From: Polaromonas sp. 39-63-25
GTDB lineage: Bacteria; Pseudomonadota; Gammaproteobacteria; Burkholderiales; Burkholderiaceae_C
NCBI RefSeq assembly: GCF_002278925.1
Contig: NZ_NCJH01000006.1
Coordinates: 372,001-436,000 of the forward strand
Direction of reading: 5' to 3'
DNA: 64,000 bases
This document shows, piece by piece, positions 4,952 through 63,900 of the stretch. Position 1 is the first letter of the stretch. Every line of letters starts with the position of its first letter. The notes beneath the pieces were generated by a model that had not been told where the DNA came from, did not search any database, and worked only from the letters and a program-made list of their open reading frames with translations. The translations under genes were made by a program, and so were the position numbers.

Positions 4952-5008
4952 GCTACTGATTTGATAGCTGCTTGCGCCCGCGGTATCTACGCCGGGGGCT
5001 TAAAATGC
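4952..5008 (+). repeat. Dispersed palindromic element, copy R1
   Basis: Copy of the ten-member family: a GCTAC..GATAGC half-palindrome followed by TGCTTGCGCCCG and a degenerate GGGCT box. It lies between rnpB and the FAD oxidoreductase gene. Confidence 0.75.
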
Positions 5009-5047
5009 TTCATAGATCCGAAATACAGATCCACGAGGTAACACCCC

Positions 5048-6667
5048 ATGATCCGCCTGACCGAGCTCAAGCTGCCGCTTGACCACCCCGAAGACGCGCT
5101 GCCCGCGCTGATTGTCAAGACGCTGGGCATCCAGCCTGCCGAGCTGCTGCGCCACAGCATCTACAAACGCAGCTACGACGCACGCAAGCAGAAGCTGCTG
5201 CTGGTCTACATCGCCGACGTCGAGCTTGCCAGCCCCGAACTGGAGCAAACACTGCTCAGGCAGTTTGAAACCAACCCCCACATTCGCCCGGCGCCTGACC
5301 AGAGCTACCACCTGGTGGCACGGGTGGACAGCGCGCCGGCTGTGCGCCCCGTCGTTGTCGGCTTCGGCCCCTGCGGCATTTTTGCGGCGCTGCTGCTGGC
5401 GCAGATGGGTTTCAAACCCATCGTGCTGGAACGTGGCAAGAAAGTGCGCGAGCGCACCCAGGACACCTGGGGCCTGTGGCGCAAGGGCGTGCTGAACCCC
5501 GAATCGAATGTGCAGTTTGGCGAGGGCGGTGCCGGCACATTTTCCGACGGCAAGCTCTGGAGCCAGATCAAGGACCCGCGTTTCCTCGGCCGCAAGGTCA
5601 TGACCGAGTTCGTCAAGGCCGGCGCGCCCGAAGAGATTCTGCTGGTCAGCAAGCCACACATCGGCACCTTCAAGCTGGTCAAGGTGGTCGAACACATGCG
5701 CGAGCAGATCACGGCGCTGGGCGGCGAGATCCGCTTCCAGCAGCGCGTCAGCGATGTGCTGATCGAGGGCGGGCAGATTCGCGGCCTGACCGTGCAGAAC
5801 CTGCAGGACGGCAGCAGCTACGAGTTGCGCGCCGACCATGTGGTGCTGGCGCTGGGCCACAGCGCACGCGACACCTTTGCGATGCTGCATGAGCGCGGCG
5901 TCTACATGGAGGCCAAGCCGTTTTCAGTAGGTTTCCGCATCGAACACCCGCAGGGCCTGATCGACCGCGCGCGGCTCGGCCAGCACGCCGGCCACCCGCT
6001 GCTGGGCGCGGCCGACTACAAGCTGGTGCACCATGCGGCCAATGGGCGTTCGGTCTACAGCTTCTGCATGTGCCCGGGCGGCACCGTGGTCGCGGCCACC
6101 TCCGAGGTGGGCCGGGTCGTGACCAACGGCATGAGCCAGTACTCGCGCAACGAGCGCAACGCCAACGCCGGCATCGTGGTCGGCATCACCCCGGCCGACT
6201 ACCCGGGCGGGCCGCTGGCCGGCATAACCTTCCAGCGCCAGCTCGAGTCACACGCCTTCACGCTGGGCGGCGGCGGCTACGTGGCGCCGGGCCAGCTGGT
6301 CGGTGATTTTGTGGCCGGCAAAGCGTCCACCCAGCTCGGCAACGTGGAGCCGTCCTACAAGCCCGGCGTGTTGATGACCGACCTGGCCAGCGCCCTGCCC
6401 GGCTACGCCATCACGGCCATGCGCGAGGCGCTGCCGGCCTTCGGCAAGAAGATCAAGGGCTTCGACATGTTTGACGCCGTGCTGACCGGCGTTGAAACCC
6501 GCACCTCGTCACCGCTGCGCATCACGCGCGGCGACGATTTCCAGAGCCTGAACGTCAGGGGCCTGTATCCGGCGGGCGAAGGCGCCAGCTACGCGGGCGG
6601 CATTTTGTCGGCTGGCGTGGATGGCATCGAGGTGGCCGAGGCGGTGGCGCTGAGCATCACCGGCTAG
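5048..6667 (+). CDS. NAD(P)/FAD-dependent oxidoreductase (COG2509-like)
   Basis: A 539-residue flavoprotein. An N-terminal ~95-residue alpha/beta domain (IYKRSYDARKQ) precedes the FAD-binding Rossmann fold at about residue 100 (VVGFGPCGIFAALLLA, then VLERG), with the family signature FGEGGAGTFSDGKL around residue 160. The C-terminal part has GEGASYAGGILSAGVDG, the second FAD-contact motif. It is homologous to uncharacterised 'FAD-dependent dehydrogenases'; the substrate is unknown. A GAGGTAA sequence precedes the ATG by about 8 bases. It stands alone, followed by a composite repeat and the htpX terminator from the other strand. Confidence 0.85.
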   Translation: MIRLTELKLPLDHPEDALPALIVKTLGIQPAELLRHSIYKRSYDARKQKLLLVYIADVELASPELEQTLLRQFETNPHIRPAPDQSYHLVARVDSAPAVRPVVVGFGPCGIFAALLLAQMGFKPIVLERGKKVRERTQDTWGLWRKGVLNPESNVQFGEGGAGTFSDGKLWSQIKDPRFLGRKVMTEFVKAGAPEEILLVSKPHIGTFKLVKVVEHMREQITALGGEIRFQQRVSDVLIEGGQIRGLTVQNLQDGSSYELRADHVVLALGHSARDTFAMLHERGVYMEAKPFSVGFRIEHPQGLIDRARLGQHAGHPLLGAADYKLVHHAANGRSVYSFCMCPGGTVVAATSEVGRVVTNGMSQYSRNERNANAGIVVGITPADYPGGPLAGITFQRQLESHAFTLGGGGYVAPGQLVGDFVAGKASTQLGNVEPSYKPGVLMTDLASALPGYAITAMREALPAFGKKIKGFDMFDAVLTGVETRTSSPLRITRGDDFQSLNVRGLYPAGEGASYAGGILSAGVDGIEVAEAVALSITG

Positions 6668-6705
6668 ATCTACCTCACACGTGTCGCTCCGCATCCTGTG
6701 ACTAT

Positions 6706-6791
6706 GTCATCCCGGACTCGATCCGGGATCCAAGCACCGCGAACCACCTTCATTCATGCAGGCATGGATTGCGGGTCAAGCCCGCAATGAC
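6706..6791. repeat. Composite inverted repeat, copy C1
   Basis: Begins GTCATCCCGG and ends CCCGCAATGAC, so the outer ends are inverted repeats (GTCAT/ATGAC). Inside are two hairpins, CCCGGACTCGATCCGGG and GCGGGTCAAGCCCGC, separated by a ~30-bp spacer. It is the same element as C2 and C3. Confidence 0.8.
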
Positions 6792-6831
6792 AGGAAAAAA
6801 GAAGGCATTTCAGCGGAAAATTGGAGCGCGC

Positions 6832-6866: not shown

Positions 6867-6878
6867 GTCCGGAGGTGC

Positions 6879-7875: not shown

Positions 7876-8625
7876 TTACCGGCGCGGGCGGAATACGAAA
7901 GAGTCATCATAAAAGGAAAAGTTCTCGTTTTCCGGCCACCAGAGCGGCACACCGAGCACCGGCAAGGGCACAAACGGTTTGGCAGCGAGCTTGTCCGCGC
8001 TCAGGTCGGCGGCCACCCAGGCATCCAGCTCCGCTATGGAATTCATAGCTGGTTGCGCCCGGTAGATATGGGCTGTGATCGGTTTTCGTGGGTAAACCAG
8101 CTTCTCCAGCAAGGCATGGCCAAACAGCACCAGCTGCGTCTGCTGCCAGAGCGGGCGCAAGTCGACAAACAGGCGCTGCCAGTCCCGATCCACCAGCGCA
8201 TCCCACAGCGGGGGCGGTGCCGACAGGAAGGCCGCGTTTTCGTCGAACACCGTCAGCGCGTCACGCACCGGCCCGCGCAGAGGCGCCACACCGGCCGCGG
8301 CGATTTCTGCGGCCTGCAGCAGGTTGAGCTTTTTCTTGGTCAGCGGAAAACGCATCCAGCACAGCCCGTTGAAAAAGTCGTGCAGGTTGTCGCGTGTCGG
8401 AACGGTGCCGGTCTCAAAAATGAACTGCTCGTAGGCCTGCCCGTCGGGCAAGTCGGACTGCGGCACAAAACGCCGTGGCGCCGCCGGCTCGCGGTTCAGG
8501 GCCTCATGACACAAGGCACCGGCTGCGATGGCCTGAGCCACGCGTTCACCGGGTTCGCGCCACGGCGCCAGCCAGGGGCGATTCCAGTCCACCGGCCAGG
8601 CTGCGGCTGGCGCGTCAGCGCTCAT
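7876..8625 (-). CDS. DUF3025 family protein
   Basis: A 249-residue soluble protein recognised by HDFFNGLCWMRFPLTKKKLN and a late YPRKPITAHIY segment, features of the DUF3025 family found in beta- and gamma-proteobacteria. No function is established. Its start overlaps the end of the NYN gene by 4 bp (ATGA), so they are translationally coupled behind pyrC. Codons around residue 190 (HIYRAQPAMNSIA) are made by an embedded copy (R2) of the dispersed palindromic element, read in frame. Confidence 0.8.
   Translation of the reverse strand: MSADAPAAAWPVDWNRPWLAPWREPGERVAQAIAAGALCHEALNREPAAPRRFVPQSDLPDGQAYEQFIFETGTVPTRDNLHDFFNGLCWMRFPLTKKKLNLLQAAEIAAAGVAPLRGPVRDALTVFDENAAFLSAPPPLWDALVDRDWQRLFVDLRPLWQQTQLVLFGHALLEKLVYPRKPITAHIYRAQPAMNSIAELDAWVAADLSADKLAAKPFVPLPVLGVPLWWPENENFSFYDDSFVFRPRR
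8033..8085 (+). repeat. Dispersed palindromic element, copy R2 (inside DUF3025 gene)
   Basis: GCTATGGAATTCATAGC followed by TGGTTGCGCCCG and a GGGCTG box, antisense to the host gene. The host reads it as RAQPAMNSIA. Confidence 0.75.
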
Positions 8626-15195: not shown

Positions 15196-15322
15196 GATTT
15201 CGATTATGCGAGTTGAAAGCAGACCGAAGCCTACGGGGAATCCCACGGGAACAGCAATTCTGGAACCGGCCGGCGACGGCAAGCTGAGCGCTTTGCAATG
15301 CGTTAACGAAACCTCTGTTTTC

Positions 15323-15377
15323 GCTATCTAAACAATAGCTGCTTGCGCCCGCAGTTATTGGGCTGCAGGCCAAAAAC
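15323..15377 (+). repeat. Dispersed palindromic element, copy R3
   Basis: GCTATCTAAACAATAGC then TGCTTGCGCCCGCAG and GGGCTGCAGGCC. Intergenic, between the LysR gene and the 3' end of the ABC exporter gene (its stop is at 15387). Confidence 0.85.
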
Positions 15378-15386
15378 ATTCAAGGA

Positions 15387-17210
15387 TTACTCGGAGCTCT
15401 GCTGTAGCGCCCACATAGACGCATATCGCCCGCCCAGCGCCAGCAAGGCGGCGTGGGTGCCGCGCTCGATGATCTGGCCGGCTTCCATCACCAGGATTTC
15501 ATGGGCGTCAACCACGGTGGACAAGCGGTGTGCCACCACCAGCGTGGTCTTGTTTTCGGCGATGCTGCGCAGCTCGGCCTGGATCGCACGTTCATTGGCC
15601 GAGTCCAGCGCCGAGGTGGCTTCGTCAAAAATCATGATGGGCGGGTTCTTCAGCAGGGTGCGGGCAATCGCCACGCGCTGCTTCTCGCCGCCGGACAGTT
15701 TCAGGCCGCGCTCGCCGACCATGGTGGCGTAACCGGCGGGAGTGGAGGCAATGAAGTCATGGATGCGGGCCGCGCGCGCGGCCTCTTCCACCTGGGCGCG
15801 GCTGGCGCCGGGCTGGCCATAGGCGATGTTGTATTCGACCGTGTCGTTGAACAGCACGGTGTCCTGCGGCACGATGCCGATCGCCTGGCGCAGGCTGGCC
15901 TGCGTCACCTCGCGGATGTCCTGGCCGGCGATGGTGATGCGGCCCTGCTGGACATCGTAGAAGCGAAACAGCAGGCGTGCCAGCGTGGACTTGCCTGCGC
16001 CTGACGAACCAACCACAGCCACCGTCTTGCCCGGCGGTATCACGAAGCTGATGTGGTGCAGGATGGGCCGGGACGGCTCATAGGCAAAACTGACGTTTTC
16101 AAAACGTACTTCCGGCGAGGCCTGCAGGCTCAGCGCCGGGGCGCCGGGTTCGTCGGCGATCTCGCGCTCGCGCTCCATCAGGTTGAACATCTTGGACAGG
16201 TCGGTCAGGCTTTGCTTGATCTCGCGGTACAGCACGCCCAGAAAGCCCAGCGGAATGTAGAGCTGGATCATGAAGGCGTTGACCATGACCAGGTCGCCCA
16301 GCGTCATGCGGCCGTCCACCACGCCCTGGGTCGCGCGCCAGAGCATGGCCACCAGACCGGTGGCAATGATCAGCTGCTGGCCGGTGTTGAGCAGGCTCAG
16401 CGTGGTCTGGCTCTTGACGGCGGCGCGACGGTAACGCTTGAGGTTTTCGTCGTAGCGCAGGGCCTCGAACTCCTCGTTGTTGAAGTACTTGACGGTTTCG
16501 TAGTTCAGCAGCGAATCGATGGCGCGGCTGTGCGCCGAGGAGTCGAGTTCGTTCATTTCCTTGCGGAACTTGGTACGCCATTCGGTCACCGTCACGGTGA
16601 AGCTGATGTAGAACACCAGCGCGATGATGGTGATGCCCGCAAACCAGACGTCGAATTTGACCGCCAGCAACGTCAGCACCAGCGTGACTTCGATCAGTGT
16701 CGGGATGATGCTGTACAGCGAATAGGAAATCAGCGAATGCACACCGCGGGTGCCGCGCTCGATGTCGCGTGTCATGCCGCCGGTCTGGCGCTCCAGGTGA
16801 AAACGCAGGCTCAACGCATGCAGATGCCGGAACACCTCCAGCGAAATGCGCCGCGCCGCGCCTTCGGTGGCCTTGGCAAACACCAGCTCGCGCAGCTCGG
16901 TAAACAGCGAGGTTGACAGGCGCAGCAACCCATAACCGACCAGCAGCGCGGCCGGCACGACCAGCACGGCCTGCACATCGCCCGGCTTGAAGCTCATCGC
17001 GTCCACCAGGTTTTTCAGCAGCAGCGGCACGCCGACGTTGGCGAGTTTGGCGCCGACCATGAAGGCCAGCGCGGCCATCACGCGCCATTTGTAGTCCCAG
17101 AGGTAGGGGAACAGGCGCTGCAGGGTCGCCCAGTCGGAGCGGTTCAGCGCAGGTTGGGGAGGTGCGCCGGGGGCGGGCGGCGTTTCGGCGGCGGGGGCAT
17201 GGGAGCGCAT
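15387..17210 (-). CDS. Atm1/HMT-type ABC exporter (membrane domain fused to ATPase)
   Basis: A 607-residue half-transporter. The six-span membrane domain covers about residues 40-330, with MTRDIERGTRGV and NYETVKYFNNE, motifs conserved in the Atm1/ABCB7 mitochondrial-type and heavy-metal-tolerance exporters that move glutathione-bound cargo. The ATPase domain follows: Walker A GSSGAGKST, signature LSGGEKQRVAIART, Walker B IMIFDEATSALD and the H-loop in VAHRLSTV. It acts as a homodimer in the inner membrane. The longer frame begins with TTG at 17219; I take the ATG at 17210. It diverges from the thioesterase gene at 17259. Confidence 0.88.
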   Translation of the reverse strand: MRSHAPAAETPPAPGAPPQPALNRSDWATLQRLFPYLWDYKWRVMAALAFMVGAKLANVGVPLLLKNLVDAMSFKPGDVQAVLVVPAALLVGYGLLRLSTSLFTELRELVFAKATEGAARRISLEVFRHLHALSLRFHLERQTGGMTRDIERGTRGVHSLISYSLYSIIPTLIEVTLVLTLLAVKFDVWFAGITIIALVFYISFTVTVTEWRTKFRKEMNELDSSAHSRAIDSLLNYETVKYFNNEEFEALRYDENLKRYRRAAVKSQTTLSLLNTGQQLIIATGLVAMLWRATQGVVDGRMTLGDLVMVNAFMIQLYIPLGFLGVLYREIKQSLTDLSKMFNLMEREREIADEPGAPALSLQASPEVRFENVSFAYEPSRPILHHISFVIPPGKTVAVVGSSGAGKSTLARLLFRFYDVQQGRITIAGQDIREVTQASLRQAIGIVPQDTVLFNDTVEYNIAYGQPGASRAQVEEAARAARIHDFIASTPAGYATMVGERGLKLSGGEKQRVAIARTLLKNPPIMIFDEATSALDSANERAIQAELRSIAENKTTLVVAHRLSTVVDAHEILVMEAGQIIERGTHAALLALGGRYASMWALQQSSE

Positions 17211-17258: not shown

Positions 17259-17705
17259 ATGTCCAACGAAACCGGCCTTCCCCCCCAAGCCCTGAACGTC
17301 AAACTGCCTCTCGACAAGGAACTGGTGCTCAAGGTGATTCCGATGCCGGCGGACTGCAATGCCAACGGCGACATTTTCGGCGGCTGGGTCATGGCCCAGG
17401 TCGACCTGGCCGGCTCGGTGATCCCGGCGCGTTATGCCGGCGGCCGCATGGCCACCGTCGCGGTCAACGAATTCATCTTCAAGCAGCCGGTTCGCGTCGG
17501 CGACATCCTGTCCTTCTACTCCGAACTCACGCGCATAGGCCGTACCTCGATGACGGTCAAGGTCGAGGTGTATGCCGAACGGTTTGGCTCGCAGGGGAGC
17601 TACATCAAGGTGACCGAGGCCAGCGTGACCTATGTGGCGATCGACGACGCCGGCCAGCCGCGCCCCGTGCCGCCGTCGTCGTTGCCGCGGCCGCTATCGT
17701 TGTGA
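17259..17705 (+). CDS. Acyl-CoA thioesterase, YciA/BACH hotdog family
   Basis: A 148-residue single hotdog domain. NANGDIFGGWVMAQVDLAG holds the catalytic aspartate region of YciA-type thioesterases, followed by AVNEFIFKQPVRVGD. It hydrolyses acyl-CoA to free acid and CoA in the cytoplasm, probably with broad specificity. The longer frame overlaps the divergent ABC gene; ATG 17259 (MSNETG) is preferred. Its last four codons and stop (RPLSL) lie inside repeat R4, so the element supplies the C-terminal end. Confidence 0.88.
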   Translation: MSNETGLPPQALNVKLPLDKELVLKVIPMPADCNANGDIFGGWVMAQVDLAGSVIPARYAGGRMATVAVNEFIFKQPVRVGDILSFYSELTRIGRTSMTVKVEVYAERFGSQGSYIKVTEASVTYVAIDDAGQPRPVPPSSLPRPLSL

Positions 17706-17752
17706 TAGCTGCCTCCGCCCGTCAGACAAGGGCTGGAGGCCAATTTCATCAT
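17693..17752 (+). repeat. Dispersed palindromic element, copy R4 (forms the 3' end of the thioesterase gene)
   Basis: A perfect hairpin arm pair GCTATC-GTTGT-GATAGC, then TGCCTCCGCCCG and GGGCTGGAGGCC. The TGA stop of the thioesterase falls in its loop. Confidence 0.85.
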
Positions 17753-18552
17753 TAAAACTTGCCGTGCCGCCCCTGGCCGCCGGCAAAACGGGCCGCGCCC
17801 TGCAGGCCCTCGCCGATGCAGTCCCGGCCGCGGTCCCATTCCTGCTTGAGCGCCTGCGGCATGGGCAGGTCCCACTGGGTATAAGCACTCTGGCGATCGG
17901 CCAGCATGGTCTTCTGGGGGAACGCCGCCAGCTGCCGCGCCAGCAACAGCGCCGCCTCACGTGCCGTGCCTTTGGACACGACCCGGTTGCACAAGCCCAT
18001 CTGCAGCGCCTCCTTCGCCTCCACCTTGCGCCCGGTCAGAATCAGGTCCATGGCATGGCCCATGCCGACCAAGCGCGGCAGGCGCACCGTGCCGCCGTCA
18101 ATCAGCGGCACGCCGAAACGGCGGCAATAAACGCCGAAGTAGGCGTCTTCCTCCATCACCCGCATGTCGCACCACAGCGCCAGCTCCATGCCGCCGGCGA
18201 CGGCTGCGCCGCTGACCGCGGCAATCACCGGTTTGGACAGCAGCAGGCGGGACGGACCCATCGGGCCCAATGGCTGGCTGTCTTCGGCCTGAAAATCCAG
18301 CGCGGCAAACATATCCGGCCCGGCGTCCTGTGGTTCGTTCAGCATCTTCGCGCCGGACTGTAAATCCCAGCCGGCGCAGTAATGTCCGTGCGCACCGTGG
18401 AACACCGCGACTTTCGCGCTGTTGTCGGCATCGAAGGCCAGGAAGGCCTCATACAAGGCACGCGCATGTTCAGCGTCCACCGCGTTGCGCACCTCGGGGC
18501 GCTCCAGGGTGACGAGGGTCACCTCGCCATCCTTCTCTATATGGACTGTCAT
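17752..18552 (-). CDS. Enoyl-CoA hydratase/isomerase (crotonase) family protein
   Basis: A 266-residue crotonase. Oxyanion-hole segments are HGAHGHYCAGWDL (about residue 60) and SGAAVAGGMELALWCDMRVM (about residue 110). The acidic position that is Glu in classic hydratases is read as ...YFGVYCRRFGVPLIDGGTVRL, so hydratase versus another crotonase activity is open. It ends the leftward AtuA-like operon, overlapping the previous gene by 4 bp. Confidence 0.88.
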   Translation of the reverse strand: MTVHIEKDGEVTLVTLERPEVRNAVDAEHARALYEAFLAFDADNSAKVAVFHGAHGHYCAGWDLQSGAKMLNEPQDAGPDMFAALDFQAEDSQPLGPMGPSRLLLSKPVIAAVSGAAVAGGMELALWCDMRVMEEDAYFGVYCRRFGVPLIDGGTVRLPRLVGMGHAMDLILTGRKVEAKEALQMGLCNRVVSKGTAREAALLLARQLAAFPQKTMLADRQSAYTQWDLPMPQALKQEWDRGRDCIGEGLQGAARFAGGQGRHGKF

Positions 18553-18935
18553 GTGTCTCCCCACCAGCCGACGCGCGGCGCGGCGAGACACGCCGCCAGC
18601 TCGTCGGCGTTGACATCAATCTCCATGCGCAACAAGGCAGCCGCCATGGACTTGCCCAGGTTGTCCAGCCGCAGATTGCGCGCACCGCCGCCCTGCAGCG
18701 CGTCGTGCAGCACCAGCTTGATCGCCAGGATGTTGGGCAGGGTCCAGCATTCGACTTCACCCGGCAGCCAGGGTGCGAAGTGTTCTGCCACACGCTGCGC
18801 GGTGACCTCGCGCGCCAGCACGGCGTAACCTGCCGCGTTCCAGGCAAACAGGCCGAAGTCCACCCAGTCGGCCTTGTCGCCGCTGCGTGCGTGGGCCAGC
18901 CTGACAAGCTGGATTTTTTGAGTGGGGGTTGTCAT
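18549..18935 (-). CDS. AtuA C-terminal-domain protein
   Basis: A 128-residue protein (LVRLAHARSGDKADWVDFG at the start, LPNILAIKLVLHDALQGGG in the middle) that matches the C-terminal domain of acyclic terpene utilisation protein AtuA. In Pseudomonas this part is fused to the larger N-terminal domain. Here it is a separate gene starting at ATG 18935 and overlapping the N-terminal-domain gene by 4 bp. The two products probably form one complex. The biochemical role of AtuA is not established. Confidence 0.85.
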   Translation of the reverse strand: MTTPTQKIQLVRLAHARSGDKADWVDFGLFAWNAAGYAVLAREVTAQRVAEHFAPWLPGEVECWTLPNILAIKLVLHDALQGGGARNLRLDNLGKSMAAALLRMEIDVNADELAACLAAPRVGWWGDT

Positions 18936-21347: not shown

Positions 21348-21440
21348 CCCCCACGCTTTTCACTTCGTGTAATACGCTGCCCCCCGGGGGGGCCGCTGCG
21401 CCTGCGGCCCGGCAAAGCCGGTTCCGCGGCCCCTGCTTGA
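21348..21440. repeat. Stop-codon-abutting GC-rich repeat, copy G1
   Basis: Starts immediately after the livH TGA with CCCCCACG, then CTGCCCCCCGGGGGGGCCGC, TGCGCCTGCGG, CCGGCAAAGCCGG and GCGGCCCCTGCTTGA. It matches G2 (40503-40600, opposite strand) nearly base for base over ~90 bp. Confidence 0.85.
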
Positions 21441-24206: not shown

Positions 24207-24242
24207 ACAATATGTACTTCCGAGTTGCATCCTCCTGCTTGT

Positions 24243-24327
24243 GTCATTGCGGACTTGATCCGCAATCCATCTCCCCCGAACTGCATTTGCGCGCGAGGCA
24301 TGGATCCCGGATCAGATCCGGGATGAC
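24243..24327. repeat. Composite inverted repeat, copy C2
   Basis: The same element as C1 in the opposite order: GTCATTGCGG...GATCCGCAAT, spacer, GGATCCCGGATC...GGGATGAC. It occupies most of the livF-ligase gap. Confidence 0.8.
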
Positions 24328-24345
24328 AGCCCTGTGGAGAAACGT

Positions 24346-30693: not shown

Positions 30694-32648
30694 GCTTCAA
30701 ACCTCAACAAGACCTGGCCGGGCGCCGTCTGCTGGCCGGGCTCCACGGCCATGGCCGCCACCACCGCATCGCGCGTCGCACACACCGCATGTTCGAGTTT
30801 CATCGACTCGATCACCAGCAAGGTGTCGCCGCGTTTCACCGATTCGCCAGCGCTCACCTTGACCGCGATCACCTTGCCATTGAAGGGCGCCCGGAGTTCC
30901 ATGGCCTGGCTGCTGGAGGCGACTCCGGCCGCAGGCTCAAAACTCGCGTCCTTGAGCCAGACATCGACCGCACCGACCTGCACATGCCAGCGCCCGCCGG
31001 CCACCCGACAGGCCTGCACCGTGCGGCTCAGGCCGTCCACCGTGACCCGCATCCGGCCGTCGCTGCCACGCACACAGGCGGCCGTGTGCCGGTGCGCGCC
31101 TGACGAAACTTCCAGCCAGCCCGCGCCGGTTTCCGTCACGGTGATGGCCAGCACCTGTTCGCCGTGCAGCACGCGCAGGGCTTGGCCGAACGGACAGGGC
31201 AAGGACTGCGCAGCGCCGGCGCCGCCCTGGAAGTGCAGCCCCAGGACGGCGGGCAACAACACCTGCGTTTGCTGGTCCTGCAAGGTCTGGCGGATGCCGT
31301 CACCATGTTCGGCCAGAAAGGGAATCAGCGCCTGGCCGGCGCGGAACACCGGGTGCGCCAGGCACGCCGCCAGAAAAGCGCGGTTGGTCGGCAGCCCCAG
31401 CACCTGCGTGCCGGCCAGCGCGGCCACCTGGCCGTCCATGGCCTGCGCCCGCGTGGCTCCATGCACGATCAGCTTGCCGAGCATGGAGTCGTAAAACGGC
31501 GTGACCTCGCCGCCAGCCTGCAGCGCATGGTCAAACCGCGCGTGCGCCGGCTCACTGAAGTGTTGCACCCGCCCGGCATGCGGCGAAAAATCATCGTCCT
31601 CGGCACACAGGCGCACCTCGATGGCGTGACCGCGGAAAACCACGTCGTCCTGGCACAGCGGCAAAACCTCGCCCTGCGCGATGCGCAACTGCCACTCGAC
31701 CAGATCCAGGCCGGTGACCGCCTCGGTGACCGGGTGCTCCACCTGCAGCCGGGTGTTCATCTCCATGAGGAAAAAATCACCGTTCTCGTCGAGCAGAAAC
31801 TCCACCGTGCCGGCGCCCACGTAGCCGGCCGCCTGCGCCAGCGCCACCGCACACGCACCCATGCGCTCACGCAGCTCAGCGTTCACTGCCGGGCTCGGCG
31901 ACTCCTCAATCAGTTTCTGGTGACGCCGCTGCACCGAACAGTCACGCTCGCCCAGGTGAATGCAGTGGCCATGTGCATCGGCAAACACCTGCACCTCGAC
32001 ATGGCGCGGGCGCAGGAGCGCGCGTTCGAGCAGCAACTCGTCGCTGCCAAAAGATGACAGGGCTTCGGAGCGCGCGCTGTGCAGGGCCGCCTGCAGCAGG
32101 GACGGCTCCAGCACCAGGCGCATGCCGCGGCCGCCGCCTCCTGCTGCGGCCTTCACCATCAGCGGGTAACCCAGTTTGTCCGCCTCGGCCGTCAAGCAGG
32201 TGTCGGACTGGTCCGGGCCCTGGTAACCGCTCAGGCAGGGCACGTTTTGCTGCAGCGCCAGATTCTTGGCACTGCTCTTGTTGCCCAGCGCGCGAATCGC
32301 CGCCGGTGGTGGCCCGACCCAGGTCAGGCCGGCGTCGAGCACAGCTTGGGCAAACTCCGCGTTTTCGCTCAGGAAACCATAGCCGGGATGCACCGCATCC
32401 GCGCCGGCCGCCTTGGCGGCAGCCAACAACTTGTCGATGCGCAAATAGGAATCGGCTGAGAGCGTGCCGCCCAGCGCCACCGCACTGCCCGCTTCCTGCA
32501 CGTGCAGGGCCTGCGCGTCGACATCGGAATACACGGCCACGGTGGCCATGCCCATGCGGTGCGCGGTGCGCATGATGCGGCGGGCGATCTCGCCGCGGTT
32601 GGCGATCAGCAGGCGGCTGATGTTGATGGTCGGGGTTGTGGTGCTCAT
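30690..32648 (-). CDS. Biotin-dependent acyl-CoA carboxylase alpha subunit (AtuF/LiuD-like)
   Basis: A 652-residue fusion of biotin carboxylase and biotin carrier. The N-terminal domain starts LLIANRGEIARRI. The ATP-grasp region has KAAAGGGGRGMRLV and FLLDENGDFFLMEMNTRLQVEHPVTE in successive segments. The C-terminal lipoyl-type domain has ESMKLEH, whose lysine is the predicted biotin site (SMKL rather than AMKM). It works with the carboxyltransferase at 34731. GTG 32657 is possible, but ATG 32648 overlaps the upstream stop by 4 bp. Geranyl- versus methylcrotonyl-CoA specificity cannot be fixed from this subunit. Confidence 0.88.
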   Translation of the reverse strand: MSTTTPTINISRLLIANRGEIARRIMRTAHRMGMATVAVYSDVDAQALHVQEAGSAVALGGTLSADSYLRIDKLLAAAKAAGADAVHPGYGFLSENAEFAQAVLDAGLTWVGPPPAAIRALGNKSSAKNLALQQNVPCLSGYQGPDQSDTCLTAEADKLGYPLMVKAAAGGGGRGMRLVLEPSLLQAALHSARSEALSSFGSDELLLERALLRPRHVEVQVFADAHGHCIHLGERDCSVQRRHQKLIEESPSPAVNAELRERMGACAVALAQAAGYVGAGTVEFLLDENGDFFLMEMNTRLQVEHPVTEAVTGLDLVEWQLRIAQGEVLPLCQDDVVFRGHAIEVRLCAEDDDFSPHAGRVQHFSEPAHARFDHALQAGGEVTPFYDSMLGKLIVHGATRAQAMDGQVAALAGTQVLGLPTNRAFLAACLAHPVFRAGQALIPFLAEHGDGIRQTLQDQQTQVLLPAVLGLHFQGGAGAAQSLPCPFGQALRVLHGEQVLAITVTETGAGWLEVSSGAHRHTAACVRGSDGRMRVTVDGLSRTVQACRVAGGRWHVQVGAVDVWLKDASFEPAAGVASSSQAMELRAPFNGKVIAVKVSAGESVKRGDTLLVIESMKLEHAVCATRDAVVAAMAVEPGQQTAPGQVLLRFEA

Positions 32649-33445
32649 GCCGCCCACCCGGGCTTGCGTTTTTCGGCAAAGGCCGCGAGGCCTTCGGCGG
32701 CCTCGGGACTGCGCAGGTTTGCTGCAAATTTGATAGCAGCTTGCGCAGACAGGTCATGGGCTGGAGCCTGATTCAGCATGTAAAGCAAAGCCTTGGTGTG
32801 GGCCACGGCGCCCGGGGCCGCCCGGCGCAGCGCGCTGATGCGCCGCGCCACGGCGGCCGGCAGATCGTCGGCAACCTCGTCCACAAGACCTTGTGCCAGG
32901 GCTTGCTGAGCGACCAGTTTTTCTCCGGACAGCATCAGCTGCCGTGCCAGCCTGTCACCCAGACGCCTGTGTACAAAAGGCGCAATCTGCGCAGGCACCA
33001 CACCCAGCGTGACCTCGGGCGTGGCAAACACGGCGCTCGGACTGGCCAGCGCGAAGTCGCCGCAACACAGCAGCCCCAGCCCGCCACCCATGGCCGGCCC
33101 GTCTGCGGCCACAAGGAGGATCTGCGGCAGGGCGCACAGCTTGCCAAGCAGGTGGCCAAAACCTGCGTTCATGGCAATCAGCGGATCGGTTTGGCCGAGC
33201 GGTAAGGCCTGCCCTATCGACTTTGCAAAGCCACCCAGACTGCCGCCTGCACAAAATGCACCGCCGCTCCCCTGCAACACGACAAAACGCAAGGCCCTGT
33301 CCTGCGCGGCGCGTGCGCAGGCTTGTGCCAGCGCCGCCACCACCTCGTCGGTCAGTGCGTTGCGCGTGGCCGGATCGTGCAGGGTCCAGTGTTCGACCTC
33401 ACCGGAGCGGGTGATCTGCAGCTTGTCGCTCATGGCCGTGCTCAT
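32645..33445 (-). CDS. Enoyl-CoA hydratase (AtuE/LiuC-like crotonase)
   Basis: A 266-residue crotonase: VLQGSGGAFCAGGSLGGF and DGPAMGGGLGLLCCGDFALA form the oxyanion hole. In an Atu-type pathway it would hydrate the carboxylated enoyl-CoA (isohexenyl-glutaconyl-CoA). The frame is open to 33826 across the upstream gene. ATG 33445 follows the dehydrogenase stop by two bases; ATG 33433 is also possible. About 20 residues near the C terminus (MLNQAPAHDLSAQAAIKFAA) come from repeat R5, read in frame. Confidence 0.87.
   Translation of the reverse strand: MSTAMSDKLQITRSGEVEHWTLHDPATRNALTDEVVAALAQACARAAQDRALRFVVLQGSGGAFCAGGSLGGFAKSIGQALPLGQTDPLIAMNAGFGHLLGKLCALPQILLVAADGPAMGGGLGLLCCGDFALASPSAVFATPEVTLGVVPAQIAPFVHRRLGDRLARQLMLSGEKLVAQQALAQGLVDEVADDLPAAVARRISALRRAAPGAVAHTKALLYMLNQAPAHDLSAQAAIKFAANLRSPEAAEGLAAFAEKRKPGWAA
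32721..32776 (+). repeat. Dispersed palindromic element, copy R5 (inside enoyl-CoA hydratase gene)
   Basis: GCTGCAAATTTGATAGC, AGCTTGCGCAGAC and GGGCTGGAGCC, antisense to the gene, read by it as SAQAAIKFAA. Confidence 0.8.
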
Positions 33446-34629: not shown

Positions 34630-34650
34630 TTTTGTCTCCTTTTATGGGTC

Positions 34651-34720: not shown

Positions 34721-34730
34721 AAGCGGGGTT

Positions 34731-40502: not shown

Positions 40503-40600
40503 ATCAAGCAGGGGGCCGCGGGTCCGGCTTTGCCGGCCCGCAGGCGCAGCGGCCCCCTCGGGGGGGCAGGGAGCTACACGCAGTGAGCGACCGTGGGGGC
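40503..40600. repeat. Stop-codon-abutting GC-rich repeat, copy G2
   Basis: On the minus strand it starts GCCCCCACGG right after the VOC gene's TGA and continues with CTGCCCCCCGAGGGGGCCGC, CCGGCAAAGCCGG and GGCCCCCTGCTTGA. It is the partner of G1. Confidence 0.85.
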
Positions 40601-43398: not shown

Positions 43399-44175
43399 TC
43401 AAACCCCGGAGAAATCCGGCTTGCGCTTTTGCATGAAGGCGCCGAAAGCTTCGCGGGCGGCCGGCTCCTTGAGCATGCGGCCAAAACTCACCCCTTCTTC
43501 GGCCATGCGCTCGGCCACCATTCCGGCCTGGCCTTTTTTCATCAGTCGCTTGGTTTCCACCAGCGAGCTCAGCGGTTTGGCCGCGAGTTTTTGCGCCTGG
43601 CGCTGCGCCAGCGCGTTGGCTTCGGCGGGTGGCACGATGCGGTTGATCAGGCCCATCTCGAGCGCCGACTCGGCCATGAAGGGTTCACCCAGCAGCAGCG
43701 CCTCGGCCGCGCGTGCGTAACCCATCAGCTGCGGTGCCAGAAAGCTCGACGCCGCTTCCGGGCACAGGCCCAGGTTCACAAAAGGCATGGAAAACGCAGC
43801 GTTATCGCCGGCATAAACCAGATCGCAGTGCAGCAGCAGCGTGGTGCCTATGCCCACCGCGGGCCCACACACGGCAGCCACCAGCGGCTTGGGGAAGGTG
43901 CTGATGCCGCGCAGGAAGCGGAACACCGGCGACTCGTGGGTGGCGGGCGGGCCATTGAGGAAATCACCGATGTCGTTGCCGGCCGAAAAAATGCTTTCGT
44001 GGCCCTGGATCACCACCACGCGCACGGCCGCATCGGCATGGGCAGCGTCCAGCGCGTCGGCCATGGCAGCGTACATGGCCGAGGTGATGGAGTTTTTCTT
44101 CTCGACCCGGTTCAGTGTGATGGTCATCACCGCGTTGTCGGTATGGACCAGGATGTCTTGGGAGGATGCGCTCAT
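43399..44175 (-). CDS. Enoyl-CoA hydratase/isomerase
   Basis: A 258-residue crotonase with oxyanion-hole segments QGHESIFSAGNDIGDFL and CGPAVGIGTTLLLHCDLVYAG, then FSMPFVNLGLCPEAASS and KPLSSLVETKRLMKK. The FVNLGLCPE segment resembles delta3,delta2-enoyl-CoA isomerase-type (PECI-like) members, so it may help degrade unsaturated acids. It is part of the beta-oxidation series. Confidence 0.86.
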   Translation of the reverse strand: MSASSQDILVHTDNAVMTITLNRVEKKNSITSAMYAAMADALDAAHADAAVRVVVIQGHESIFSAGNDIGDFLNGPPATHESPVFRFLRGISTFPKPLVAAVCGPAVGIGTTLLLHCDLVYAGDNAAFSMPFVNLGLCPEAASSFLAPQLMGYARAAEALLLGEPFMAESALEMGLINRIVPPAEANALAQRQAQKLAAKPLSSLVETKRLMKKGQAGMVAERMAEEGVSFGRMLKEPAAREAFGAFMQKRKPDFSGV

Positions 44176-58162: not shown

Positions 58163-59149
58163 ATGACAAAACGATTCACTCTAAAAACAATAGCATGCTG
58201 CGCAATCATGGCGGGCACCCTGGGCACATTTGGCATGGCCCATGCGCAGACCAAACTGAAATGGGCGCACGTCTATGAAACGTCCGAGCCCTACCACAAG
58301 TGGTCGGTCTGGGCGGCCGACGAGTTCAAGAAACGCACCAACGGCAAGTACGAGATCCAGGTCTTCCCGGCTTCCAGCCTGGGCAAGGAAAGCGACATCA
58401 ACCAGGGCCTGCAACTGGGCACGGTGGACATCATCCTGACCGGCGCCTCCTTTGCTTCCAACTCCTATCCGCGCCTGGCTGTCAGCTACTACCCCTTCAC
58501 CTTCCGCGACGCGGACCATGTGGTCAAGTACGGCAAGAGCGATGTTTTCAGGGAACTGGCCGAGGGCTACAAGAAGGCCACCGGCAACACGGTGACCGCG
58601 CTGACCTACTATGGCGCCCGCCACGCCACCAGCAACAAGCTGTTCACCAACTGCGACCAGATGAAGGGCCTGAAGATGCGGGTGCCCGATTCTCCGGCCT
58701 ACACCGCGCTGCCGCGCGCCTGCGGCGCGAACCCGACACCCATCGCGTTTGCCGAGGTCTACCTGGCGCTGCAGAACGGCACCGTGGATGCGCAGGAAAA
58801 TCCGCTGCCCACCATCGAAGCCAAGAAGTTCTATGAAGTGCAGAAGAACATCATCCTGACCGGCCACATCTCCGACGCGCTGCTCACGGTGATTTCACCC
58901 AGCACCATGGCCAGGCTGTCGCCGGCCGAGCAGAAGCTGCTCGCCGAGATCACGCAGGAAGCCGCCGAAAAGGCCACCAACGACATCCGCAAGCGTGAAG
59001 GCGAGCTGGTGGAAGAGTTCAAGAAAAAGGGCAACAACGTGGTGACGGTTGACCGCGCCGACTTCCAGCAGCGCGTACTCAAGGCCATCACCTTCGAATC
59101 CATGAAGCTCGACAAGAAAGACTGGGACCGCATCATCGCCATCAAGTAA
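58163..59149 (+). CDS. dctP: TRAP transporter solute-binding protein DctP
   Basis: A 328-residue periplasmic receptor. Signal peptide residues 1-27 (ending GMAHAQT) precede LKWAHVYETSEPYHKW, MKGLKMRVPDSPAY (carboxylate-binding arginine) and NGTVDAQENPLPTIEAKKFYE. It captures a carboxylic acid, here probably a sugar acid, for DctQM. The ATG at 58163 follows GAGGAG; the frame upstream is a shadow over the GntR gene. Confidence 0.9.
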   Translation: MTKRFTLKTIACCAIMAGTLGTFGMAHAQTKLKWAHVYETSEPYHKWSVWAADEFKKRTNGKYEIQVFPASSLGKESDINQGLQLGTVDIILTGASFASNSYPRLAVSYYPFTFRDADHVVKYGKSDVFRELAEGYKKATGNTVTALTYYGARHATSNKLFTNCDQMKGLKMRVPDSPAYTALPRACGANPTPIAFAEVYLALQNGTVDAQENPLPTIEAKKFYEVQKNIILTGHISDALLTVISPSTMARLSPAEQKLLAEITQEAAEKATNDIRKREGELVEEFKKKGNNVVTVDRADFQQRVLKAITFESMKLDKKDWDRIIAIK

Positions 59150-59806: not shown

Positions 59807-59818
59807 CACCCACACACC

Positions 59819-61251: not shown

Positions 61252-62790
61252 ATGACCCCATTTATCCGCCTTCATCCCGCCGACGACGTCCTGATTGCCC
61301 GCGCCCAGCTGGTGGGCGGCACCCAGGTCGAAAACATCACCGTCAAGGGCCTGATCCCGCCCGGCCACAAGGTCGCCACACGCACACTGGCGGCCGGCGA
61401 GCCTGTGCGGCGCTACAACCAGATCATCGGTTTTGCCAGCAAGGCGATTGCCCCCGGTGAGCATGTGCACACGCACAACCTCGACATGGGTCCCGACAAA
61501 GGCGACTTTGCGCGCGACTATGCCTTTGGCGCCGACGTGAAACCCGCCGCCCCTCGGCGCGAAGCGACCTTCATGGGCATCAAGCGCGCCGACGGCCGGG
61601 TGGCCACGCGCAACTACATCGGCATCCTGTCCAGCGTCAACTGCTCGGCCACTGCCGCGCGTGCCATCGCCGACCATTTTTCGCGGCAAACCAACCCGGC
61701 CGCGCTGAAGGACTTTCCCAACGTGGACGGTGTGGTGGCGCTGACGCACGGCACCGGCTGCGGCATGGCCACCGAGGGCATGGGTATGCAGATCCTGGAG
61801 CGCACGTTGGCCGGCTACGCCACCCATGCCAACTTTGCCGGCGTGCTGGTGGTGGGCCTGGGCTGCGAGGCCAACCAGATCAACGCCTGGCTGGCGCACA
61901 GCGCGCTGCGCGAAGGCGACAACTTCCGCGTCTTCAACATCCAGGACACCGGCGGCACGCGCAAGACGGTGGACAAGGGGATTGCCCTGATCCAGGAGAT
62001 GCTGCCGCGCGCCAATGCGGTGAAACGCGAACCCTGCAGCGCGGCCCACATCACCATCGGCCTGCAATGCGGCGGCTCCGACGGTTATTCGGGCATCAGC
62101 GCGAATCCGGCGCTGGGCGCGGCGGTGGACCTGCTGGTGGCGCATGGCGGCACCGCCATCCTCAGCGAAACCCCTGAAATTTACGGCGCCGAGCACCTGC
62201 TGACACGCCGCGCCGTGCGCCCCGACATCGCCGAAAAACTGATCGCCCGCATCAAGTGGTGGGAGCACTACACCGCCATCAACGAAGGCGAGATGAACAA
62301 CAACCCCTCGCCCGGCAACAAGGCCGGTGGTCTGACGACCATTCTCGAAAAGTCGCTGGGCGCCGTAGCCAAGGGCGGTACCAGCAACCTCGAGGCGGTG
62401 TACGAATACGCCGAACCCGTGGGCGCACACGGCTTTGTCTACATGGACACGCCGGGTTACGACCCGGTCAGCGCCACCGGCCAGGTGGCCGGCGGCGCCA
62501 ACCTGATCTGCTTCACCACCGGACGCGGCTCGGCCTATGGCTGCGCGCCCTCGCCTTCGCTCAAGCTCGCCACCAACTCGGCGCTGTGGCAGCGCCAGGA
62601 GGAGGACATGGACATCAACTGCGGCGAGATCATCGACGGCGGTGTGTCTGTGCAGGAAATGGGCCAAAAGCGAGCAACACGGCTATGGGCAAAACGAATT
62701 TGTGCCCTGGCAAGTCGGCGCCGTGATGTGATCCAGCTACTTTTTATATGCAAAAAACACTCCCAGCCCAATCACTGCAAGCGCAAGTAG
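61252..62790 (+). CDS. UxaA-family (altronate/galactarate) dehydratase with a 3' frameshift
   Basis: An N-terminal SAF domain (FIRLHPADDVLIARAQLVGG) and the large dehydratase domain (GCGMATEGMGMQILER, QCGGSDGYSGISANPALG, CGEIIDGGVSVQEMG). It would remove water from an altronate-type sugar acid. The normal family ending is not in frame: after EMGQ the frame continues as unrelated RATRLWAKRI to 62790. The expected end, EQHGYGQNEFVPWQVGAVM, is in the next frame and stops at 62731. About 15 residues that usually precede it are missing, so a small out-of-phase deletion near 62662-62671 is likely. The gene may be inactive, altered, or mis-assembled here. Confidence 0.8.
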   Translation: MTPFIRLHPADDVLIARAQLVGGTQVENITVKGLIPPGHKVATRTLAAGEPVRRYNQIIGFASKAIAPGEHVHTHNLDMGPDKGDFARDYAFGADVKPAAPRREATFMGIKRADGRVATRNYIGILSSVNCSATAARAIADHFSRQTNPAALKDFPNVDGVVALTHGTGCGMATEGMGMQILERTLAGYATHANFAGVLVVGLGCEANQINAWLAHSALREGDNFRVFNIQDTGGTRKTVDKGIALIQEMLPRANAVKREPCSAAHITIGLQCGGSDGYSGISANPALGAAVDLLVAHGGTAILSETPEIYGAEHLLTRRAVRPDIAEKLIARIKWWEHYTAINEGEMNNNPSPGNKAGGLTTILEKSLGAVAKGGTSNLEAVYEYAEPVGAHGFVYMDTPGYDPVSATGQVAGGANLICFTTGRGSAYGCAPSPSLKLATNSALWQRQEEDMDINCGEIIDGGVSVQEMGQKRATRLWAKRICALASRRRDVIQLLFICKKHSQPNHCKRK

Positions 62791-62805
62791 CTACCGTTTT
62801 AATAG
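62748..62805 (-). repeat. Dispersed palindromic element, copy R9 (forms the Ldh2 N terminus)
   Basis: On the minus strand GCTATTAAAACGGTAGC, TACTTGCGCTTGC and GGGCTGGGAG. The rightward gene reads the other strand as QAQVATVLIAA, the same relation as the other coding copies. Confidence 0.75.
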
Positions 62806-63812
62806 CAGCCGGCAGCACTGCCGATGAAGCCGCTGCCGTGGCGGCCAACCTGGTACTGGCCAACCTGAGCGGCCACGACTCCCACGGCGTGGGCATGCTG
62901 CCGCGTTATGTGGACGCGGTGCTCGAGGGCGGCCTGCATCCCAACACCGGCGTGAAGGTGGTGCTCGACACCGGTTCGCTGCTCACGCTGGACGGCCAGC
63001 GCGGCTACGGCCAGATCGTCGGCCAGCAGGCCATGGCGCTGGGCATGGAACGCGCCAAAACCCATGGCAGCTGCATCATGACATTGGCCAACGCGCACCA
63101 CCTGGGGCGCATCGGGCACTTCGCCGAAATGGCCGTGGCCCAGGGGCTGGTGTCGCTGCATTTTGTCAACGTGCTGTCGCGCCCGGTGGTCGCACCTTTC
63201 GGCGGTGCCGATGGCCGCTACGGCACCAACCCCTGCTGCATCGGCATTCCGTTGGCGGGACGTGCACCTTTCGTCCTGGACTTCGCCACCAGCCGCGTGG
63301 CGCAAGGAAAAATGCGCGTCGCCCACAACGAAGGCCGGCGCGTGGAGCCCGGCACGCTGATCGACGAACACGGCCAGCCCACCACCGACCCCGGCGTGGT
63401 CGTGGTGCCGCAGAGCAATGGCCTGTTCGGCGCGCTGCTGGCCTTTGGCGAACACAAGGGTTACGGCATGGCCGTGGCCTGTGAACTGCTGGGCGGCGCG
63501 CTGACCGGCAGCGGCACCTGGCACAAGCCGACCGACCCGGCCGTGCGCGCGGTGATCAACGGCATGTTGACCATCCTGATCGACCCGGCCAGGCTAGCGA
63601 TCCAGGCCACGTTTGAGCAGGAAGCGCTGGCTTTTGTCGACTGGCTCCAGGCCGGGCCAGTGGCGCCGGGATTTGACGCGGTGCAGATCGCCGGTGACCC
63701 GGAGCGGGCCTATCGCGCGCAGCGGCAGGACCGTGGCATCGCGGTCGATGCCCAGACCTGGCAGGAGATCGTGGCCGCGGGCCGCAAGGTCGGGGTGTCG
63801 CTGCCCGACTGA
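62748..63812 (+). CDS. Ldh2-family (malate/L-lactate-type) dehydrogenase
   Basis: A 354-residue NAD(P)H-dependent oxidoreductase: LANLSGHDSHGVGMLPRYV contains the catalytic His region, and CCIGIPLAGRAPFVLDFATS and GEHKGYGMAVACELLGGALTG are family landmarks. Relatives reduce 2-keto acids or 2,3-diketo-gulonate. Here it probably handles a keto-sugar acid. The start ATG overlaps the out-of-frame tail of the UxaA gene, and the first ~20 codons derive from repeat R9. Confidence 0.87.
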   Translation: MQKTLPAQSLQAQVATVLIAAGSTADEAAAVAANLVLANLSGHDSHGVGMLPRYVDAVLEGGLHPNTGVKVVLDTGSLLTLDGQRGYGQIVGQQAMALGMERAKTHGSCIMTLANAHHLGRIGHFAEMAVAQGLVSLHFVNVLSRPVVAPFGGADGRYGTNPCCIGIPLAGRAPFVLDFATSRVAQGKMRVAHNEGRRVEPGTLIDEHGQPTTDPGVVVVPQSNGLFGALLAFGEHKGYGMAVACELLGGALTGSGTWHKPTDPAVRAVINGMLTILIDPARLAIQATFEQEALAFVDWLQAGPVAPGFDAVQIAGDPERAYRAQRQDRGIAVDAQTWQEIVAAGRKVGVSLPD

Positions 63813-63837
63813 CGCCTTCCGACCGCCGCCCACCTGA

Positions 63838-63900
63838 AACTATGAAATTGATAGCTGCCTGCGCTTATCTGGTTTGGGCTGAAGGCCAAAATGACCATGA
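63838..63900 (+). repeat. Dispersed palindromic element, copy R10
   Basis: ACTATGAAATTGATAGC, TGCCTGCGCTTATC, GGGCTGAAGGCC, ending AAATGACCATG. The ATGs at its right end are the possible starts of the next gene. Confidence 0.85.

What the first reader, a model, noticed from the sequence alone, without database searches (positions are those of the whole stretch)
4952..63900. A ~57-bp palindromic element occurs ten times, and all five copies inside gene starts or bodies are read in the same frame
Copies at 4952, 8033, 15323, 17693, 32721, 35512, 43341, 50924, 62748 (minus) and 63838 share GCTAT..ATAGC, TGCTTGCGC and GGGCTGGAGGCC. Five overlap coding sequence in antisense, and each host gene reads the element in one identical phase. 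The peptides are RAQPAMNSIA (DUF3025), SAQAAIKFAA (hydratase), RAQAAMDSVA (carboxyltransferase), RALTAIFLGA (DUF2147 signal peptide) and QAQVATVLIA (Ldh2 N terminus). This resembles the Rickettsia palindromic elements that insert in frame into proteins; I know of no such description for this family. A fixed frame implies selection against the stops present in other phases, or insertion that creates protein sequence.
Basis: partly seen in the sequence, partly recalled or inferred. Interest (0 to 1): 0.82.

Follow-up and report, generated by a model that had tools for sequence, protein, structure and literature searches.

The report
Genome-wide DNA signature, possibly uptake signal
A roughly 70-letter DNA signature recurs at least 170 times in the quarter of this bacterium's genome that was examined, and it seems to be spelled out in place, even inside ordinary genes, rather than pasted in; it may be the tag by which these bacteria recognise and take up DNA of their own kind.

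Summary
The ten copies are real, and the window holds an eleventh. The five genic copies listed share one reading phase, but the eleventh (3507-3576) is genic in another phase and orientation. In 1.198 Mb of this 4.83-Mb genome a ~70-bp, ~60-bit motif occurs 172 times, reversed control 0.

In-frame insertion is not supported: 10 of 12 host proteins align without gap to a motif-free congener; MurG, hydratase and Ldh2 align gap-free to unrelated proteins. No near-identical pair of copies was found (best 79%). The palindrome arms do not covary. The motif appears to be kept in place as a DNA sequence read by a protein (inference).

Best reading: a family-wide DNA-uptake signal with dialects, like DUS/USS but much longer; species-specific transformation reported in Acidovorax lacks a known signal. 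Competence genes do not track the motif. A chromosomal binding site remains a serious rival.

The parts
   Evidence: one-residue gap against the motif-free congener
4948..5017 (+). motif copy, 57.3 bits, intergenic, 25 bases from RNase P RNA
   Evidence: no gap against G180
7876..8625 (-). DUF3025 protein hosting a copy
   Evidence: PF11227 E 1.3e-73
15319..15388 (+). motif copy, 69.6 bits, intergenic
17689..17758 (+). motif copy, 68.0 bits, touching the 3' end of ORF 17752-18591(-); classed 'partial' because of a short plus-strand gene call 17259-17705 that may be spurious
   Evidence: no gap against 4k3w or G180
32645..33433 (-). enoyl-CoA hydratase/isomerase hosting a copy
   Evidence: PF00378
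34731..36374 (-). acyl-CoA carboxyltransferase hosting a copy
   Evidence: PF01039
43337..43406 (+). motif copy, 57.1 bits, between two minus-strand genes, its last bases over the 3' end of ORF 43399-44175(-)
58174..58243 (+). weak candidate copy, 17.4 bits; orthologous G181 site scores 20.3
   Evidence: no gap against 2g8y from residue 6
62748..63812 (+). malate/L-lactate dehydrogenase hosting a copy
   Evidence: PF02615
63835..63904 (+). motif copy, 64.4 bits, intergenic after the Ldh_2 gene

Best explanation
It is a long, degenerate, genome-wide DNA recognition motif of the Comamonadaceae, gained and lost in place by base substitution and kept by selection or drive on the DNA itself, not a mobile insert. 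Consensus: TTGCTAY N AAAWT N RTAGCTGCTTGCGCCCG (about 7 free bases) AAGGGCTGGAGGCC N ATTT (about 7 free) AA, about 70 bp. Most likely job: a DNA uptake signal. A surface protein of the type IV pilus/competence machinery would bind it, DNA carrying it would be taken up preferentially, and alleles that come closer to the motif would spread by biased transformation, also inside genes wherever a reading phase gives tolerable amino acids. Shown here: collinearity of most tested hosts, no near-identical copies in the sample, conservation of informative against free positions in intergenic copies, near-restriction to the family, differences between genera, patchy presence within a genus. Inferred: that a protein reads it, that uptake is the process, and the driving step.
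For: Count and control: 172 copies in 1.198 Mb, reversed control 0. Collinearity: 10 of 12 host proteins without gap against motif-free G180; MurG 30 of 30 loci without gap; no gap against unrelated proteins in MurG (1f0k), hydratase and Ldh2. No near-identical copies: best pair among 172 is 0.786 identical, column-shuffled control 0.700-0.786. DNA-level pressure: between G000 and G181 7 intergenic sites differ at 22/252 informative and 45/111 free positions, p 6.5e-12; 21 of 21 alignable sites keep the motif in G181; codons rarer inside than outside the motif in 65 of 65 genic copies, p 2.4e-12 (any A+T-rich sequence in this genome would show this); MurG site score follows genome-wide core count, Spearman 0.57, p 0.001, 30 genomes. 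Distribution: exact core in 41 of 150 family genomes and 38 of 61 genus genomes, single hits counted and own included; in the order 2 of 5 family members, and 5 of 195 others with one hit each. Genus differences outside the core. The two longest motif-free stretches, one of low G+C with surface-sugar genes, one opening with a Tn3 transposase gene. Convergent intergenic regions rich, divergent poor. ComEC and ComP_DUS genes present. Literature: species-specific transformation in Acidovorax, pilus-dependent transformation in Verminephrobacter, signal not named (PMC4212676, passages); an A. temperans stretch carries three sites.
Against: ComEC and ComP_DUS do not follow the motif: motif-free G180, G162 and G206 have both; motif-rich G199 shows no ComEC hit; G151 (14 cores, 83% complete) shows neither. 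The motif is far longer than known uptake sequences (9-11 bp in the passages). Scores are bimodal, 20 sites between -5 and 18 bits against 172 above, not the obvious result of stepwise gain. Against G180 informative and free positions of 12 genic sites differ alike (175/430, 69/190, p 0.33), and in G181 genic copies the contrast is weak (26/360 against 20/160, p 0.065); informative positions there change as fast as flanks (p 0.76-0.92). Free positions in intergenic or gene-edge copies change faster than neighbouring non-coding DNA, which uptake alone does not predict. Intergenic copies on C31 lean to one strand, 38 to 13. The carboxyltransferase copy goes with extra length. No binding or uptake was measured.
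Confidence: 0.52

Rival explanations
1. A binding site for a chromosomal protein (nucleoid organiser, SMC/partition or repair factor) kept by selection in place, unrelated to DNA uptake.
For: In-place maintenance, neighbouring positions that switch together (mutual information), the motif-free acquired-looking stretches and the strand lean of intergenic copies on C31 fit this as well; competence genes do not follow the motif.
Against: Patchy within one genus, 0 to 156 exact cores; no strand preference on C52 (39 to 41 copies) nor relative to tandem genes (24 to 22); far longer than recalled sites such as parS, matS or KOPS.
Confidence: 0.27
2. A mobile palindromic element that inserts in frame into genes, like Rickettsia palindromic elements.
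For: High copy number, inverted-repeat look, one host (carboxyltransferase) 7-10 residues longer than relatives; a favoured phase.
Against: No gap in 10 of 12 hosts against G180, in 30 of 30 MurG loci, or against unrelated proteins in three hosts; no near-identical pair among 172 copies, though only a quarter of the genome was compared; shared positions in the 21 alignable G181 sites; the length change in the exception is about half of the motif's 18 or so codons or less.
Confidence: 0.06
3. An RNA structure or transcription terminator whose hairpins are what matters.
For: Inverted repeats; 30 of 87 assigned intergenic copies lie between convergent genes, which hold 16.1 of 103.9 kb of intergenic DNA; covariation score reached by 6 of 500 and percentage paired by 12 of 500 shuffles.
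Against: The excess is small, 78.1% paired against 77.2%; arms do not covary; copies lie inside genes in both orientations; no Rfam match at the copies.
Confidence: 0.06
4. An active rewriting process (site-specific break and repair, or conversion of short patches between copies) keeps stamping the motif and scrambles its free positions.
For: Free non-coding positions in intergenic or gene-edge copies differ at 21/59 against G199 while non-coding flanks differ at 19/525 and third codon positions at 100/791; G181 49/112 against 96/776 and 325/1930; G204 16/58 against 13/374; G197 16/33 against 8/40. The carboxyltransferase copy differs by 0.23 in G181 with flanks 0.03.
Against: G153 0/8 with one site; no whole-copy similarity between copies; the DUF3025 copy evolves like its flanks; 1 to 11 sites per comparison; part of the non-coding flank lies beside or in constrained DNA such as RNase P.
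Confidence: 0.08

Closest known systems
Neisseria DNA uptake sequence (DUS) and Pasteurellaceae uptake signal sequence (USS)
   Same: Many degenerate copies, both strands, also in genes; one orientation favoured in genes (PMC2346458, abstract and passages); core rather than foreign genes associated with DUS (stated in PMC4212676 passages); dialects (PMC3630211, search listing only); ComP_DUS and ComEC genes present here.
   Different: About 70 bp and 60 bits instead of 9-11 bp (PMC4212676 passages); no sequence likeness to the cores as recalled or quoted; no uptake shown.
Spaced motif pairs ATAGCT(N)22CAAAAG (P. naphthalenivorans) and GCTTAT(N)5AAGCG (A. ebreus), PMC5217627 (passages and section 13 read)
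   Same: The first fits positions 0-5 and 28-33 of this motif in spacing (28 C and 33 G agree, the AAAA between differs from this genome's TGGA); the second fits the Acidovorax form. 125 and 114 copies, 34 and 44 between convergent genes. Very probably fragments of the same motif (inference).
   Different: Reported as potential novel, mainly intergenic motifs; the full motif, coding copies written in place, the family-wide spread and a link to uptake are not in the parts read.
Rickettsia palindromic elements (recalled)
   Same: Repeat sequences inside genes in a favoured phase.
   Different: Those are inserts that lengthen proteins; here most hosts tested are not lengthened.
Beta-proteobacterial repeat element BRE (PMC3110155; abstract, passages and section 14 read)
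   Same: Repeat of Betaproteobacteria incl. Polaromonas and Acidovorax, usually intergenic, some inside genes.
   Different: ~90 bp, average 69% G+C in Bordetella, sometimes tandem; the 184 matches here have 25-62% G+C and no two neighbouring copies of the 172 lie within 200 bp. BRE sequence itself not seen.

Membership tests
DNA uptake sequence (DUS/USS kind) | strongly over-represented motif, chromosome-wide, both strands | tested here: met
   172 in 1.198 Mb, control 0; 99 plus, 73 minus
DNA uptake sequence (DUS/USS kind) | copies arise and decay in place, also inside conserved genes | tested here: met
   exception carboxyltransferase
DNA uptake sequence (DUS/USS kind) | preferred reading phases set by tolerable peptides | tested here: met
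DNA uptake sequence (DUS/USS kind) | scarce in foreign DNA | tested here: inconclusive
   two long motif-free stretches; 2 of 72,556 plasmid and 0 of 50,697 phage records, but BLAST with a consensus is insensitive to such degenerate copies and had no positive control
DNA uptake sequence (DUS/USS kind) | competence machinery present | tested here: met
   one ComEC PF03772 and two ComP_DUS PF16732 matches in G000; but these do not discriminate motif-free genomes
DNA uptake sequence (DUS/USS kind) | raises uptake of DNA carrying it | not testable with these tools
   needs a bench assay
DNA uptake sequence (DUS/USS kind) | short core of about 9-12 bp | tested here: not met
   36 positions above 0.8 bit over 70 bp; so not filed as a known DUS or USS
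Rickettsia palindromic element kind | insertion that lengthens the host protein | tested here: not met
   10 of 12 without gap, one with 1 residue, one with 10 residues
REP/MITE-like mobile repeat | near-identical recent copies | tested here: not met
   172 copies from a quarter of the genome
BRE | ~90 bp, about 69% G+C | tested here: not met

The most novel reading that the evidence does not exclude
The Comamonadaceae carry a third family of DNA-uptake signals, and by far the longest: a ~70-bp, ~60-bit, genus-dialected tag that biased transformation has written base by base into hundreds of sites, including codons of conserved genes such as murG, and that decays in lineages that stop reading it.
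Probability: 0.47. Interest if true: 0.87.

Novelty: new variant of a known kind. Interest (0 to 1): 0.74.

Why it matters
[quoted passage not shown] I know of no other proven family. A long candidate tag in Polaromonas, Acidovorax, Rhodoferax, Ottowia and others would give a concrete sequence to test for the species-specific transformation reported in Acidovorax, would show that drive can write a motif of this size into coding DNA, and would offer motif-rich and motif-free congeners for finding the receptor. Even if the reader of the motif is a chromosomal protein, so many in-place copies of a ~60-bit site without known function is unusual.

Tried and rejected
In-frame insertion: rejected for most hosts tested. 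A first reading of G180 as proof of writing was softened: collinearity with a congener alone could also mean an old insert that decayed, so unrelated proteins were compared. The MurG site shared across the genus, and four G180 sites between -5 and 11 bits with none in the reversed control, one of them orthologous to a G000 copy, suggest that the motif is old there and G180 lost it. RNA hairpin: rejected as the main feature. Rfam: no match at the copies. Co-distribution of ComP_DUS or ComEC with the motif: no discrimination. A search for over-represented 11-mers in motif-free G180 gave weaker words than the motif word in G000. Isoelectric points of ComP-like pilins: only 7 of 31 loci parsed, no conclusion. 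Dicodon coding score per phase did not explain phase use; amino-acid commonness did. AroE as an outgroup test is not clean: a 9-residue gap to the solved homologues abuts the motif.

Failed or weak steps: one search used a pattern with one N too many and found 0 even in the own genome, so it says nothing; one search replaced it. The orthologue step returned nothing because of BLAST settings and was redone. The gene caller is home-made. The PWM and all counts come from copies found with a model built on the window's ten copies. One search scored only 150 of 5679 candidates, so it gives no genome total. In one search hosts below 50% identity to G180 were dropped without a count, and 2 of 14 did not cover the motif. 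The genus groups were selected by a fixed core, so dialects inside the core could hardly show.
Full report
Observation. A covariance model built from them finds 184 matches at E up to 1 in 60 stretches, 1.198 Mb of the 4.83-Mb genome; the best 150 were aligned. A 70-bp position weight matrix made from the best 120 finds 172 sites above 18 bits, none in the same sequence read backwards, i.e. 139 and 149 per Mb on the two contigs; extrapolated to the genome, roughly 690 (my arithmetic, not counted). The motif spans about 16 bases before to 53 after the A of ATAGC and fades to background outside; it holds about 60 bits with 36 positions above 0.8 bit. In the window there are eleven copies above 18 bits and one of 17.4.

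Phase. Of the 172 copies 88 are intergenic, 65 fully genic and 19 partial, although about 91% of the sample is called coding. Open-frame expectation from intergenic copies: 16.5, 18.6, 1.5, 13.9, 2.3, 12.2 (chi-square p 1.5e-11). On the 150 model matches the order is much the same: 25, 13, 6, 5, 2, 0 of 51 fully genic. Observed over expected ranks with the mean frequency, in this proteome, of the amino acids that each phase encodes (Spearman 0.986, six points). So the bias is real but graded: stops and unusual residues are avoided. The window's copy at 3507-3576 is a sense-2 case. PMC2346458 (abstract and passages) reports that one orientation of uptake sequences is commoner in genes; a fuller treatment by Findlay and Redfield is recalled, not seen.

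Insert or in place? G180, a congener, has no site above 18 bits in 570 kb (best 10.8). Of 14 host proteins with a match at 50% identity or more there, 12 cover the motif: 10 have no gap, one a one-residue gap, one (carboxyltransferase) ten residues. At 12 genic sites the motif region differs from G180 at 175/430 informative and 69/190 free positions against 697/3523 in flanks (one gapped site dropped); informative and free positions do not differ from each other (p 0.33). Because an old insert decayed in G180 would also look collinear, I compared unrelated solved proteins: MurG against 1f0k has no gap across the motif (against 3s2u two one-residue gaps), the hydratase against 4k3w none, Ldh2 against 2g8y none from residue 6. 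AroE is not clean. The carboxyltransferase is about 7-8 residues longer than 5ikl and 3u9r there, less than the 18 or so residues of the motif core. MurG was found in 58 of 61 genus genomes; the 30 loci fetched, own included, are all collinear and 24 of 30 score above 18 bits, the other six being G183, G191, G177, G152, G174 and G180. The site score follows the genome-wide core count (Spearman 0.57, p 0.001). The first leucine there is CTA in 25 of 30 by my reading, a codon that makes up 1% of leucine codons in the sample of this genome. Across 65 genic copies codon adaptiveness is lower inside the motif than elsewhere in the gene in 65 of 65; this shows that the DNA letters, not codon habit, rule there, but any A+T-rich sequence would show it.

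No sign of copying. Among 172 copies the most similar pair is 78.6% identical; shuffling each column gives best pairs of 70.0-78.6% over 50 runs, mean 73.1%; the 99th percentile of pairs is 0.671 against 0.643, so the real set is slightly more alike than shuffles, as correlated neighbouring positions would make it. A spreading element should show recent twins; three quarters of the genome were not compared. Against G181 the 21 alignable sites of C31 keep the motif, and of 25 G181 copies 22 align to C31, 21 of them above 18 bits there. Informative against free positions: 22/252 and 45/111 in 7 intergenic sites (p 6.5e-12), 14/144 and 15/63 in 4 partial sites (p 0.015), 26/360 and 20/160 in 10 genic sites (p 0.065); informative positions change about as fast as flanks.

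Sequence or structure? The arms do not covary: position -8 T or C goes with position 0 A or G alike (72/22 and 50/14); pairing is 78.1% against 77.2% in shuffles (12 of 500 reach it), and the covariation score is reached by 6 of 500. Mutual information is strongest between neighbouring positions that switch together, 0.77 bits at +23/+24 and 0.65 at +39/+40 against a null maximum of 0.13, which suggests protein contacts or A-tract shape (inference).

Distribution. Exact core, own genome and single hits included: 41 of 150 family genomes, 38 of 61 genus genomes with 0 to 156 copies, and of 200 order genomes 2 of 5 family members with many copies plus 5 of 195 others with one each; 15 genomes of that call have a reversed-control hit by my count. 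The closest of these stretches to the sampled part of this genome is a Polaromonas MAG, 92.8% over 2.4 kb, so the window is probably Polaromonas. Genera differ outside the fixed core: Acidovorax tends to GCGCTT...AAGCGCT, Comamonas (12 sites, 75% above 18 bits) lacks much of both flanks.

Location. Of 87 assigned intergenic copies 30 are convergent, 46 tandem, 11 divergent, where those regions hold 16.1, 60.4 and 27.4 kb. The longest motif-free stretches are 63 kb with 56.8% G+C (contig 63.5%), with mainly surface-sugar genes among ten proteins scanned, and 90 kb of ordinary G+C whose first scanned protein is a Tn3 transposase and the other nine metabolic; both exceed the 99th percentile of random maximum gaps.

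How it most likely works. Shown: a DNA motif kept in place, in most hosts tested not inserted, not mainly an RNA hairpin. Inferred: a protein reads it and biased acquisition spreads it. DNA uptake fits best: PMC4212676 (passages) reports natural transformation in Acidovorax temperans, A. facilis and Verminephrobacter eiseniae, pilus-mediated in the last, no detectable transformation of the tested Acidovorax with DNA of another Acidovorax species, and suggests sequence specificity without naming a signal in the passages seen; an 8-kb stretch of A. temperans here holds three sites of 26, 49 and 29 bits. One ComEC and two ComP_DUS matches are in this genome. Against: these genes are also in motif-free congeners, motif-rich G199 shows no ComEC hit and G151 neither; intermediates are few. 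I put uptake at about one half, a chromosomal binding site at about one quarter.

Novelty. PMC5217627 (passages and section 13) had found two word pairs that fit fragments of this motif in P. naphthalenivorans and A. ebreus, of unknown role. Four 13-letter core words occur in no paper of the library; 'uptake sequence' with Comamonadaceae or with Polaromonas in none; 'DNA uptake sequence' with Burkholderiales in one Neisseria paper and with Acidovorax in three, PMC4212676 among them. Most subscription journals are not held, so this is limited.

Unexplained. Free non-coding positions inside intergenic or gene-edge copies change faster than neighbouring DNA: against G199 21/59 versus 19/525 non-coding flank and 100/791 third positions (5 sites); G181 49/112 versus 96/776 and 325/1930 (11 sites); G204 16/58 versus 13/374 and 118/767 (5 sites); G197 16/33 versus 8/40 and 133/570 (3 sites); G153 0/8 with one site.

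Noticed in passing
window 21380-21433 and 40512-40565: 54-nt G+C-rich inverted pair, 93% complementary, a different repeat; its composition recalls the ~69% G+C BRE of PMC3110155, whose sequence was not seen.
   Followed up: no
window 6705-6792, 24242-24328, 34646-34721: Other palindromic repeat families with closely similar copies, 84-97% in most pairs listed (TGTCATTGCGG..CCGCAATCCAT and TCCCGGA..TCCGGGA types); in contrast to the motif they may be ordinary mobile palindromes.
   Followed up: no
window 35508-35577 and other copies; L093, L291-L303: Free positions inside intergenic or gene-edge motif copies diverge faster than flanks between close relatives.
   Followed up: partly
G000:C31:437400-500360 (just beyond the window end; L052-L055): 63 kb motif-free, low-G+C stretch with NeuB, glycosyltransferase and sugar-epimerase genes.
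   Followed up: partly
G000:C52:1-90057 (L064-L068): 90 kb motif-free stretch opening with a Tn3-type transposase gene.
   Followed up: partly
G000:C31:10001-670000: Intergenic copies lean to the plus strand, 38 to 13; not seen on C52, 16 to 21.
   Followed up: no
window 4596-4923 (-): Bacterial class A RNase P RNA, with a motif copy 25 bases beyond its 5' end.
   Followed up: no
G000:C54:55935-56225 and G000:C18:316492-316752 (L122, L123): Two ComP_DUS pilin-like genes, candidates for a motif receptor.
   Followed up: partly
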